Of a stretch of 64,000 nt of DNA, positions 14,773 through 20,700 are shown one piece after another. This DNA comes from Parapristionchus giblindavisi. Lineage: Eukaryota; Nematoda; Chromadorea; Rhabditida; Diplogasteridae. A program made the position numbers and the translations under genes. The stretch is taken from NCBI GenBank assembly GCA_943737045.1, contig CALSFV010000663.1:56001-120000 (forward strand). The letters are read 5' to 3'. How positions within the stretch are numbered: position 1 is the stretch's first letter; every line of letters starts with the position of its first letter. Below the pieces are notes generated by a model. That model was given only the letters and a program-made list of their open reading frames with translations. It was not told the DNA's origin and ran no database searches.

Positions 14773-17700
14773 TTATTTCAATTGAGCCCATGAATCTCCA
14801 ATTGAAATCTTGACAGGAAGTTTAACAGAACATTGAGGGAAAGATGTTTCCATTGCATTCTTAATCAGAGAAGATACTTCTTCCTCCACTTTATCTCCTT
14901 TTGGAATCTAAACACAATTACGATCAATCAATATCATGAGATACAGTACCTCGACAATGATTTCATCGTGAACTTGCATGACTACAGTACCATTTACGAC
15001 TAAACAATATTGATTATTCAATATGGAAATATATAGAATGATTCACCTTCTATACACTTTTCAACAGCAATCAATGCACTTTTGAATATCTCACTCGCTG
15101 TTCCCTTTAATGATTACAATGAATCAAAAGATCAAAGATCAAAACCTGAATGGTAAAATTAATGGACTGTCGATGTTGACGTGATCGTGATTCTTGATCT
15201 CCAAGAGAAGAAACAAAACGACGACGACCTATAAATGAAGTAGATGATAATAAATGTAATGGAATGAATAATGTACCCAATTGAGTCTCAACATATCCTC
15301 TTTTAATTCCTTCTTCATTCGTTCTATCAATATATGTACGAGCCTCTTAATACTTTTATTTAATACTTCTAATCAATATTTTGTCTTCTTATCAAAACAT
15401 TGAATATGAAAAGAAAAAGATGAGTCAATGAAATATGAAAGATACTAGGGAATGTAGAGAAGAAATGATTAATCATCTTCTGTGCTTCGTCTTTTGAACA
15501 TTCTAATTTCTCTCCAAGAGATCTTGATCCCATTCCATAGATCATTCCATAACACACTACCTTCATAAGTAATCAATATTGATTAGTAGATCATTATATC
15601 AATCAATACCTTCACTGTAGCTCTAGTCTGCTTCCATTCCTTTGACAACTTTGTGAAAATGTCAATACTCTAGAAAGTAAATAATTCTGACAAAATCTAC
15701 AGTGTCTCTGCCACTACCTTACCTCATCATTCAATAATCTACAGTATTTCTACCACTACCGTATCTCATCATTCAATAATCTACAGTATTTCTACCACTA
15801 CCGTATCTCATCATTCAATAATCTACAGTATTTCTACCACTACCGTATCTCATCATTCAATAATCTACAGTATTTCTACCACTACCGTATCTCATCATTC
15901 AATAATCTACAGTGTCTCTGCCACTACCGTATCTCATCATTCAATAATCTACAGTATTTCTACCACTACCTTACCTCATCATTCAATAATCTACAGTATT
16001 TCTACCACTACCGTATCTCATCATTCAATAATCTACAGTGTCTCTGCCACTACCGTATCTCATCATTCAATAATCTACAGTATTTCTACCACTACCTTAC
16101 CTCATCATTCAATAATCTACAGTATTTCTACCACTACCTTACCTCATCATTCAATAATCTACAGTATTTCTACCACTACCGTACCTCATCATTCAATAAT
16201 CTACAGTATTTCTACCACTACCGTATCTCATCATTCAATAATCTACAGTGTCTCTGCCACTACCGTATCTCATCATTCAATAATCTACAGTGTCTCTGCC
16301 ACTACCGTATCTCATCATTCAATAATCTACAGTACCTCTACCACTACCGTATCTCATCATTCAATAATCTACAGTATTTCTACCACTACCGTATCTCATC
16401 ATTCAATAATCTACAGTATCTCTACCTCTACCGTATCTCATCATTCAATAATCTACAGTATCTCTACCTCTACCGTATCTCATCATTCAATAATCTACAG
16501 TATTTCTACCACTATCGTACCTCATCATTCAATAATCTACAGTATTTCTGCCACTACCGTACCTCATCATTCAATAATCTACAGTATTTCTACCACTACC
16601 GTATCTCATCATTCAATAATCTACAGTGTCTCTGCCACTACCGTATCTCATCATTCAATAATCTACAGTATTTCTACCACTACCTTACCTCATCATTCAA
16701 TAATCTACAGTATTTCTACCACTACCGTATCTCATCATTCAATAATCTACAGTGTCTCTGCCACTACCGTATCTCATCATTCAATAATCTACAGTATTTC
16801 TACCACTACCTTACCTCATCATTCAATAATCTACAGTATTTCTACCACTACCGTATCTCATCATTCAATAATCTACAGTGTCTCTGCCACTACCGTATCT
16901 CATCATTCAATAATCTACAGTATTTCAACCACTACCTTACCTCATCATTCAATAATCTACAGTATTTCTACCACTACCTTACCTCATCATTCAATAATCT
17001 ACAGTATTTCTACCACTACCGTACCTCATCATTCAATAATCTACAGTATTTCTACCACTACCGTATCTCATCATTCAATAATCTACAGTGTCTCTGCCAC
17101 TACCGTATCTCATCATTCAATAATCTACAGTGTCTCTGCCACTACCGTATCTCATCATTCAATAATCTACAGTACCTCTACCACTACCGTATCTCATCAT
17201 TCAATAATCTACAGTATTTCTACCACTACCGTATCTCATCATTCAATAATCTACAGTATCTCTACCTCTACCGTATCTCATCATTCAATAATCTACAGTA
17301 TCTCTACCTCTACCGTATCTCATCATTCAATAATCTACAGTATTTCTACCACTATCGTACCTCATCATTCAATAATCTACAGTATTTCTGCCACTACCGT
17401 ACCTCATCATTCAATAATCTACAGTATTTCTGCCACTACCGAACCTCATCATTCAATAATCTACAGTATTTCTGCCACTACCGTACCTCATCATTCAATA
17501 ATCTACAGTATTTCTGCCACTACCGTACCTCATCATTCAATAATCTACAATATTTCTACCACTACCGTACCTCATCATTCAATAATCTACAGTATTCCTG
17601 CCACTACCGTACCTCATCATTCAATAATCTGCAGTATTTCTACCACTACCGTACCTCATCATTCAATAATCTACAGTATTTCTACCACTACCGTACCTCA

Positions 17701-20700
17701 TCATTCAATAATCTACAGTATTTCTGCCACTACCGTACCTCATCATTCAATAATCTACAGTATCTCTACCTCTACCGTACCTCATCATTCAATAATCTAC
17801 AGTATCTCTACCTCTACCGTACCTCATCATTCAATAATCTACAGTATCTCTACCTCTACCGTACCTCATCATTCAATAATCTACAGTATCTCTACCTCTA
17901 CCGTACCTCATCATTCAATAATCTACAGTATCTCTACCTCTACCGTACCTCATCATTCAATAATCTACAGTATTTCTACCACTACCGTATCTCATCATTC
18001 AATAATCTACAGTGTCTCTGCCACTACCGTATCTCATCATTCAATAATCTACAGTATTTCAACCACTACCTTACCTCATCATTCAATAATCTACAGTATT
18101 TCTACCACTACCTTACCTCATCATTCAATAATCTACAGTATTTCTACCACTACCGTACCTCATCATTCAATAATCTACAGTATTTCTACCACTACCGTAT
18201 CTCATCATTCAATAATCTACAGTGTCTCTGCCACTACCGTATCTCATCATTCAATAATCTACAGTGTCTCTGCCACTACCGTATCTCATCATTCAATAAT
18301 CTACAGTACCTCTACCACTACCGTATCTCATCATTCAATAATCTACAGTATTTCTACCACTACCGTATCTCATCATTCAATAATCTACAGTATCTCTACC
18401 TCTACCGTATCTCATCATTCAATAATCTACAGTATCTCTACCTCTACCGTATCTCATCATTCAATAATCTACAGTATTTCTACCACTATCGTACCTCATC
18501 ATTCAATAATCTACAGTATTCCTGCCACTACCGTACCTCATCATTCAATAATCTGCAGTATTTCTACCACTACCGTACCTCATCATTCAATAATCTACAG
18601 TATTTCTACCACTACCGTACCTCATCATTCAATAATCTACAGTATTTCTGCCACTACCGTACCTCATCATTCAATAATCTACAGTATCTCTACCTCTACC
18701 GTACCTCATCATTCAATAATCTACAGTATCTCTACCTCTACCGTACCTCATCATTCAATAATCTACAGTATCTCTACCTCTACCGTACCTCATCATTCAA
18801 TAATCTACAGTATCTCTACCTCTACCGTACCTCATCATTCAATAATCTACAGTATCTCTACCTCTACCATACCTCATCATTCAATAATCCTTTTAGTTTA
18901 ATATCTCCACTCATATGAGCAAGAACACGTAGTTCAAGTTGACAGAAATCAGCAGATAACAGAACTCGATCTACAATAATCCAGTAACAGTTGAAAGAAA
19001 AACAATGAAATGTCTTACCTTTACCCGGAATGAAAAGAGATCGAATTGAAAAATCAGATAAGACTGGATCTTTGCCTACATTCTGTACATTGGGACGAGA
19101 TGAGAGAACTCGTCCTGAATGGAAAAGATAAGGATACGGTAATTATGATAGAATGAATCGATAATGTTACCAGTGGATGAAAAAAGATTGAATCGTGTAT
19201 GAATGGAGATGACATCCCCATTCACATCCCCATATACAGTATCTGGTAATGATTCACGAAGAGGTACGATACATTGCTAGAAAGAACTTATTGATTATCA
19301 ATCGATCAATAGATAGATACAGTAACCCACCGATACAGCATGTTTAAGTCTACGATACTCTAATATCAATCCAGGTAGAGGATGTATTCCTACTATCTGC
19401 TCTAACACAGCCTGAGATCAATACAATCAATCAATCAATATTTTTATTCATCTACCGTACCTTATTTGTTGGTAAATGTCGCTTGAGTGTTGCCCCCGAT
19501 CCACCAGGATACGGTAGTCGGAGTGTTGTGAATAAAACCTACAACAGAATATTATTATTATTATTATATGACATTAGATAACCTCAGCGACTTCAATTGG
19601 ACTCTCAAGATTCATTCTTCTTCCTTTATTCAATTTCATTGTTTTTTCTTCTATCCAATTCATTCTCATTCTCATTTCTTTAACTGCCCAATCACATTTC
19701 AATCGATTGAATTTGATTCCTCTTCCTGCCATTCGATCGATTGACTACAATAGAATACAGTATACTCTCATTTATTGATTCATCACTTACTCCAACTGAT
19801 TCCATTTCTAATTCCACTGAATCTTTACTCGATTGAGATATAGCCATTGATCGTAGTCTAAATAGAGACAAAAGATTAATCAATCAATAATATTGATTGG
19901 TTACCGTACCTCATCTCAATTCGTGAATTGATCCATGCAATAGCAGAAGATTGAAGACGAGGAGAAGAAGAAGAAAGATATGGTTGCCATTGAATACGAA
20001 ATGAAAATGTTGATGCTATCTATAGAGAGAATGAAAGAATGATCAGTTCATGATAGATAGAGACTACAGCATACCTCTGATAGAGTCATTGGAGAATCTC
20101 CTCTACGAAAATGACCAAGGAATGATAGATATGATAAACAGATTGGAGTACATTTAATTGTCAAATCCTAGAAATATCGATTGATAGAGATCAAAGATCA
20201 AAGAGTAAAGAACTTTGAAAGCAGATCGAATCAATTCCATCGATCGAAGAGCATCAAATAGAAAGATTCTATTGATTGATGAAAACAGATCTTCTATAAC
20301 TGCCTGTGATATAATCAATCGATAATTAGATTCAATCGATAATTACAGTACCTTTCTTTCATCAATCGATATACTCTCCAATGGTGTAGCACTTACAGCC
20401 AATTCTTCATCATTCGCATTACCTCAAATATCTACAGTGTAATCTATCCTACCGTATACTCTACCTACCGTATATATCATCATCTGTCAATGGTACATAA
20501 TATACAGTATCTTCATCAAAACTACCGTATTCATTCTCTTCATTCTCATTGGATTGTACTTTGGATATGGCCAGACCTGAAGAAAGATAACGAATAGTGT
20601 GAGACCAGTAATCAATAAAAACAATAAATAAATGTATTACCGTACCTACTAGAACTTCACTTGATCTCATCGATTTAGTAGCCACTCCAATAGAGATATC

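What the first reader, a model, noticed from the sequence alone, without database searches (positions are those of the whole stretch)
15697..18888. Second, independent exon-end/5' splice-site satellite in the same gene (76 x 42 bp exactly)
The unit is 16 nt of exon (ATTATTGAATGATGAG) + 26 nt of intron, repeated 76 times with no net indel, ending flush in the real exon of the motif A block. It is unrelated in sequence to the other polq array but built on the same principle: tandem multiplication of an exon-intron junction. Two such events in one gene argue for a recurrent mechanism or selection rather than chance. In many units a preceding CTGTAG puts an AG before the 16-nt exon copy, so each unit resembles a 16-nt micro-exon.
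Basis: partly seen in the sequence, partly recalled or inferred. Interest (0 to 1): 0.93.

Follow-up and report, generated by a model that had tools for sequence, protein, structure and literature searches.

The report
Splice-site satellite in polq intron
In a nematode's gene for the DNA-repair enzyme polymerase theta, one intron holds 76 tandem copies of its own exon end and splice start; it is likely a by-product of small duplications in very short introns of a repeat-rich genome rather than a selected device.

Summary
On the minus strand the last 16 nt of the polq motif-A exon recur 76 times at a strict 42-nt step, filling a 3,203-nt intron that would be 53 nt without the extra 75 units. 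All 76 units end in AG, but only 40 keep GT; 36 read AT. The first polq array (31,736-29,160) really does repeat 21 nt of its own exon end.

Junction arrays recur: five other places in this 251-Mb genome repeat an apparent exon end plus donor. But they are not favoured. The genome is saturated with TACGGTAG (80,356 copies, 15 times a control). Motif triplets with AGG before every copy are 2.0% of triplets, against 6.2% of all motif sites; in 30 fetched arrays, 2 of 139 later copies. For a 42-bp unit in a 53-nt intron, exon capture is expected in about 40% of placements.

Best account: a 42-bp tandem duplication across the junction, likely primed by a GATT match, then amplified in multi-unit blocks and tolerated because the first donor stays usable. 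Micro-exon inclusion would bring an immediate stop, and the Pristionchus orthologue shows the plain junction. The invariance of the 16 exon columns is unexplained.

The parts
18873..18970 (-). polq exon coding the DNA polymerase A motif A region (...RVLLSADFCQLELRVLAHMSGDIKLKGLLNDE); its last 16 nt are the exon part of the unit
   Evidence: Pfam DNA_pol_A 8.4e-25; PDB DNA polymerase theta 1.9e-15; P. mayeri protein
18871..18872 (-). authentic 5' splice site GT (GATGAG|GTATGG)
   Evidence: sequence; joined protein LLNDE-SIDIF as in P. mayeri
15697..18888 (-). array: 76 x 42 bp (16 nt exon copy + 26 nt intron copy)
15670..18872 (-). array-filled intron, 3,203 nt; 53 nt without 75 units
18886..18889 (-). 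GATT at the exon end of the duplicated segment
15694..15697 (-). GATT at the far end of the array, the likely duplication microhomology
15610..15669 (-). next polq exon (SIDIFTKLSKEWKQTRATVK), after acceptor TTTCTAG
29160..31736 (-). first polq array: 42 copies of the exon end counting the real one, in units mostly of 53-68 bp, each followed by GTTAGATATG
31716..31838 (-). polq helicase exon whose end (GAATGGGATGTACTGATAGAG) is repeated in the first array; its intron runs 31,715-23,883 (7,833 nt)
   Evidence: P. mayeri GRLGQSER-GESIVV. The gene finder put this exon end 5 nt further; homology decides
14773..34312 (-). polq gene as predicted (41 listed exons, some exons missed)
   Evidence: self-trained gene finder and homology

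Best explanation
The array is an intron of a nematode polq gene that likely grew from about 53 nt to 3,203 nt after a 42-bp stretch spanning the exon end and the 5' splice site was duplicated in tandem, probably through a 4-nt GATT match, and was then amplified to 76 copies. Shown: exact 42-nt register, flush start at the real exon, GATT at both ends, and identical multi-unit blocks (13, 11 and 8 units) repeated inside the array. Inferred: the first duplication came from microhomology-primed repair or slippage, and the amplification from unequal exchange or conversion. Inferred: splicing continues at the first donor because that copy adjoins the exon; use of a later donor, or inclusion of a 16-nt copy, would bring an in-frame stop, so the array is tolerated rather than used. 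Inferred: exon sequence is in the unit because a 42-bp unit barely fits inside a 53-nt intron, in a genome full of TACNGTA repeats, many of which abut apparent donors.
For: Register, flush start and intron length. GATT at both ends of the duplicated segment; a match of 4 or more has a local chance of 0.7%, and the first array shows GAA, 3 nt. Repeated blocks GHHIJKKIDLMKI, CGHHIJKKIDL and BBBBCDEF of identical unit types. polq introns are short: 27 of 40 gaps between listed exons are 69 nt or less and only the two array introns exceed 1 kb. Geometry: 5' capture of 6 nt or more in 0.40 of placements for a 53-nt intron and 42-bp unit. Motif background: 80,356 TACGGTAG against 5,438 reversed control; 6,327 triplets against 1. 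AGG-bearing triplets are rarer than AGG-bearing sites: 129/6,327 against 4,987/80,356. Stops on mis-splicing in the four cases tried. Orthologue junctions without insertion.
Against: The 16 exon columns are invariant in 76 units while 13 of 26 intron columns vary (p about 4e-4 if columns are exchangeable); simple drift does not predict this. It is not seen in the first array, where 3 of 21 exon positions and 1 of 39 intron positions vary (the difference there, p 0.12, is not significant), nor in L011 or L035 by eye. The first array's intron is 7,833 nt, where capture by chance would be near 1% unless it too began short. Triplet counts are per match, not per array, so units with two motifs dilute the 2.0%; and the low figure may only mean that most arrays start from motif copies that are not donors. 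The first copies of 30 arrays are AGG more often than sites at large (6 of 30, p 0.009). No RNA evidence was available.
Confidence: 0.74

Rival explanations
1. Junction-directed birth: something about 5' splice sites (R-loops, U1 binding, a GTACGGTAG seed) makes tandem duplication start there, so junction satellites are a specific recurrent product.
For: Seven arrays have an apparent exon end in the unit: two in polq, L009, L011, L012, L013, L035. In 30 arrays from the start of the motif listing the first copy is AGG|TACGGTAG in 6 of 30, against 6.2% of all sites (p 0.009), and by eye 16 of 30 begin at or within some 40 nt of an apparent donor.
Against: Later copies carry AGG in only 2 of 139; arrays beside donors mostly leave the exon out. 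Arrays in short introns must lie near a donor anyway; distance to acceptors was not measured. The first polq array is not TACGGTAG-based.
Confidence: 0.13
2. Selected splicing device: the copies act as micro-exons or decoy donors that lower or tune productive polq mRNA (poison exons).
For: GTACGG (25 units), GTAAGG (10) and GTATGG (1, the real donor) score with the strongest predicted donors (97-100th percentile), and three unit acceptors sit at the 34-45th percentile. Inclusion or read-through gives an immediate stop. The exon copy is invariant in all 76 units.
Against: 36 of 76 units have lost GT. The spacer between neighbouring copies is 26 nt, below the smallest gap of 41 nt between listed polq exons. 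Exon copies in the first array do vary. No expression data.
Confidence: 0.08
3. Assembly artefact: the array is real but its unit number or exact register is a product of long-read consensus.
For: Tandem arrays of near-identical units are hard to assemble; if the species is the one inferred, a reassembly changed total size from 251.6 to 303.1 Mb (PMC12181933, text part 1 of 2 read).
Against: Sixteen unit types in an ordered, non-random pattern, a strict register and unique flanks on both sides.
Confidence: 0.05

Closest known systems
Intronic minisatellites of nematodes (for example CeRep25B in C. elegans, PMC4039745, passages seen)
   Same: Tandem units of tens of bp, largely in introns, suggested to bear on splicing
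   Different: CeRep25B is a 24-bp family found in clusters on two chromosomes; here the unit is private to the locus and contains the host exon's own end and donor
Intron gain by tandem duplication of an AGGT segment (Rogers model; ATP2A1; fission yeast SPOG_01682 with 24-bp copies; as told in PMC4974935, passages seen)
   Same: Tandem duplication of a short segment carrying AG|GT, with copies ending up inside an intron
   Different: Those start from exonic AGGT and create a new intron; here an existing junction was copied and an existing intron lengthened
Potato RdRp junction duplication (PMC4974935, passages seen)
   Same: Duplicated segment crosses an exon-intron boundary
   Different: Holds the 3' part of an intron and the start of the next exon, and makes a new intron
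Tandem duplications with theta-type junctions in C. elegans helq-1 mutants (PMC8654963, abstract and passages seen)
   Same: Tandem duplication in a nematode germ line, with junctions that bear the marks of end joining
   Different: About 100 bp to 10 kb; a 42-bp unit in 76 copies needs further amplification

Membership tests
Intronic minisatellite | Head-to-tail units of about 10-100 bp within an intron | tested here: met
   Period 42, 76 copies, between donor 18,872 and acceptor 15,670
TACNGTA repeats of this genome | Unit carries TACNGTAG motifs | tested here: met
   Units carry TACGGTAG and TACTGTAG; 80,356 TACGGTAG in the genome against 5,438 reversed control
TACNGTA repeats of this genome | Later copies lack an AG|GT junction (usual form in the 30 arrays fetched) | tested here: not met
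   Here 40 of 76 units keep GAG|GT; in the 30 arrays 2 of 139 later copies carry AGG: an uncommon form
Intron gain by AGGT tandem duplication (Rogers type) | A new intron arises from duplicated exonic sequence | tested here: not met
   The copied segment already spans an exon-intron junction, and the 53-nt intron left without the extra units has its own acceptor
Introner elements | Near-identical copies dispersed at many loci | tested here: not met
   Matches above 90% lie only at this locus; the other listed hits are 66-75% identical (the search scores only its best candidates)
Micro-exon array | Copies are spliced into mRNA | not testable with these tools
   No RNA data held; the orthologue protein shows the plain junction
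Microhomology-primed tandem duplication | Short identity at the two ends of the duplicated segment | tested here: met
   GATT for this array, GAA for the first; the enzyme responsible is not tested

The most novel reading that the evidence does not exclude
Splice donors of the form GTACGGTAG act as seeds of satellite birth in this worm, and in polq the outcome is about 80 decoy donors (39 more GT-bearing copies in this intron, 41 in the other) that throttle splicing of polymerase theta, the very enzyme whose end joining creates such duplications: a self-limiting loop written into its own introns.
Probability: 0.04. Interest if true: 0.85.

Novelty: new variant of a known kind. Interest (0 to 1): 0.42.

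Why it matters
It is an extreme natural test of how a spliceosome picks one 5' splice site out of dozens of near-identical ones 42 nt apart, in a conserved DNA-repair gene. It also shows how a minisatellite born in a very short intron can pick up the exon end and donor, which gives a plain null model for 'exon-derived' repeats and warns against reading them as selected. The wider finding, a worm genome in which one donor-like 8-mer is 15 times over-represented and forms many tandem arrays, about half of those looked at beginning near an apparent donor, makes the birth of intronic satellites open to genome-wide study.

Tried and rejected
Selection on the exon copy: suggested by 0 of 16 variable exon columns here, not kept as a general rule because exon copies vary in the first array (3 of 21 positions) and, by eye, in L011 and L035. 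Dispersed mobile unit: not found. Structured RNA: no Rfam family reaches its threshold in the window. The self-trained gene finder works in AT-rich genes such as polq but predicted no exon at most of the C1-C2 arrays shown, so array starts were judged by eye and by open frames. Pfam supports the exon for L012, L035, L039 and L040; for L013 there is a weak Peptidase_C50 match across the junction, below its cut-off; nothing for L009 and L011 (in one search I had given a wrong frame for L011) nor for L055, and only sub-threshold or no matches for four others tried (L041, L043, L049, L050). The finder was first trained without masking and then placed 'micro-exons' inside the array; I retrained with masked arrays and do not use the first result as evidence. 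Its minimum intron of 28 nt was set by me, so it says nothing on 26-nt introns, and its 443 introns probably include false ones. Species naming by COX1 gave no species: the best named hits, at 94%, are Litoditis and a mixed Rhabditida cluster, among 120 listed of 7,998. Literature: open-licence PMC searches (several listings capped: 15 of 71, 12 of 1,114, 12 of 17, 10 of 23) listed no paper that by its title or abstract start describes donor-site arrays of this kind; subscription papers are mostly not covered.
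Full report
What is there. The window is part of contig C662 (56,001-120,000) of a 251-Mb, 703-contig genome. A polq gene lies on the minus strand, about 34,312 to 14,773: helicase exons match DEAD (2.6e-19) and the polymerase exons DNA_pol_A (8.4e-25) in Pfam, DNA polymerase theta chains in the PDB (1.9e-15), and Pristionchus mayeri proteins at 60% and 66% identity. The species is probably Parapristionchus giblindavisi: its 2022 assembly had 735 contigs and 251.6 Mb (PMC12181933, text part 1 of 2 read). 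That is an inference from assembly size and kinship only; COX1 gave no species name.

The array. ATTATTGAATGATGAG occurs 76 times, always 42 apart. The first copy is the real end of the exon coding ...GLLNDE; the intron then runs 3,203 nt to TTTCTAG|AGTATTGAC. Without 75 units it would be 53 nt, like most polq introns: 27 of 40 gaps between listed exons are 69 nt or less (several of the wider gaps probably hide exons that the finder missed). Only the two array introns exceed 1 kb; one further gap is 777 nt.

Unit anatomy. All 76 units end in AG and begin with the 16-nt copy; 40 have GT after it (25 GTACGG, 10 GTAAGG, 3 GTACGA, 1 GTATGG, 1 GTTCGG) and 36 have ATACGG. So the micro-exon look (AG, 16 nt, GT) is complete in about half of the units. 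Against 443 predicted introns, the four donor forms scored (GTATGG, GTACGG, GTAAGG, GTTCGG) lie in the 90-100th percentile and the three unit acceptors scored in the 34-45th. But neighbouring copies are 26 nt apart, and inclusion of one, two or three copies, or read-through of one unit, hits a stop at once. The P. mayeri protein has MSGDERLKGLLNDESIDIF with nothing between LLNDE and SIDIF.

Variation. There are 16 unit types; 13 of 26 intron columns vary and 0 of 16 exon columns, p about 4e-4 by column. I could not explain this. It is not a rule: in the first polq array the exon part varies at 3 of 21 positions and the intron part at 1 of 39, apart from changes in the number of TTTGATC steps; that difference is not significant (p 0.12). 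The order of unit types shows repeated identical blocks of 13, 11 and 8 units, so much of the growth was likely by multi-unit duplication.

Origin. The exon reads AAAAG-GATT-ATTG and the sequence at the far end CTGTA-GATT-TTGTC, so the duplicated segment is bounded by GATT; for random end pairs 30-59 nt apart in this stretch a match of 4 or more occurs in 0.7%. The first array has GAA. In C. elegans, tandem duplications with theta-type junctions accumulate in helq-1 mutants (PMC8654963, abstract and passages), but they are larger; slippage would serve as well. The enzyme is not shown.

Is junction capture special? A similarity search returned eight other places beyond this array; in four of the eight (L009, L011, L012, L013) the unit starts with what looks like the local exon end, though the query itself held a GAGGTACGG donor, so that sample is biased. 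Pfam supports the exon for L012 (kinase), though an in-frame TGA in the next apparent exon may mark a pseudogene; L013 has a sub-threshold Peptidase_C50 match across its junction; L009 and L011 rest on open frames. I then took arrays from the listing for three TACGGTAG within set spacing, which shows the first part of 6,327 matches, on contigs C1-C3. I count 34 separate arrays there and fetched 30; the four left out repeat matched text of fetched ones. Two of the 30 (L029, L054) are near-identical copies. By eye 16 of 30 begin at or near an apparent donor, yet only L035 (a papain-type protease...GGCGSCW) has exon sequence in the unit. Copies with AGG before the motif: first copy 6 of 30, later copies 2 of 139, against 4,987 of 80,356 sites, 6.2% (147 of 5,438 in the reversed control). 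Genome-wide, triplets with AGG in all three are 129 of 6,327. Arrays that carry the donor along are thus rarer than a random choice of motif sites would give. That fits mild selection against decoy donors, but may also mean only that most arrays start from motif copies that are not donors.

Geometry. If a duplicated segment may fall anywhere that leaves one intact donor and acceptor, a 42-bp unit in a 53-nt intron includes 6 nt or more of the upstream exon in 0.40 of placements, lies inside the intron in 0.15 and takes in the downstream exon in 0.32. Over the predicted introns the figure for 42-bp units is 0.31 per intron, 0.20 weighted by opportunity. In the contiguous neighbourhood (L017-L020 and the window, 104 kb) the intron arrays that I could place split between capture (two in polq) and none (kinesin intron 42,554-41,374, L018, L019); other arrays there were not placed. 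The case that fits least is the first polq array: its intron is 7,833 nt now, where capture would be near 1% by chance unless it began short. All seven captures seen are of the 5' side; 3' capture was not searched for.

Verdict. The claim that two such arrays argue for a junction-directed mechanism or selection is not borne out; the recurrence is real, but the counts that I could make show no excess over motif background and geometry. What remains open is whether the splicing machinery ever uses the copies, why the 16-nt copy is invariant, and why array starts fall on donors as often as they do.

Noticed in passing
whole genome G000; window 64 kb: TACNGTA motifs are hugely over-represented (TACGGTAG 80,356 against 5,438 for the reversed control), with 6,327 matches to a three-motif cluster pattern (control 1); GTACGG also begins 16 of 443 predicted introns.
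   Followed up: partly
window 41374-42554 (-): A kinesin gene intron (Pfam Kinesin 1.1e-23 across the junction) holds two 35-bp arrays (42,543-42,078 and 41,759-41,386) that look like one array split by an element with long inverted repeats.
   Followed up: partly
window about 23900-31700: The 7.8-kb polq intron that carries the first array appears to contain a Vsx/ceh-10-like homeobox gene on the opposite strand (partial Homeodomain match just below the Pfam cut-off; the Vsx name is recalled). The partial P. entomophagus protein starts exactly after this intron (GESIVV), so a long intron may be old.
   Followed up: partly
window 15674-18918 (+): Two 1,075-codon open frames on the opposite strand are probably a by-product of the 42-nt period (a multiple of 3) with no stop in those frames.
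   Followed up: no
L012 (C14) downstream exon: The kinase whose exon end is repeated reads GTGCACTGAGATGTC where HRDVK would be expected (recalled motif): an in-frame TGA, perhaps a pseudogene.
   Followed up: no
window 25019-25118 (+): A perfect two-copy 42-bp repeat lies, by eye, about 15 nt inside an intron beside an apparent donor of the homeobox gene; a possible newborn array.
   Followed up: no
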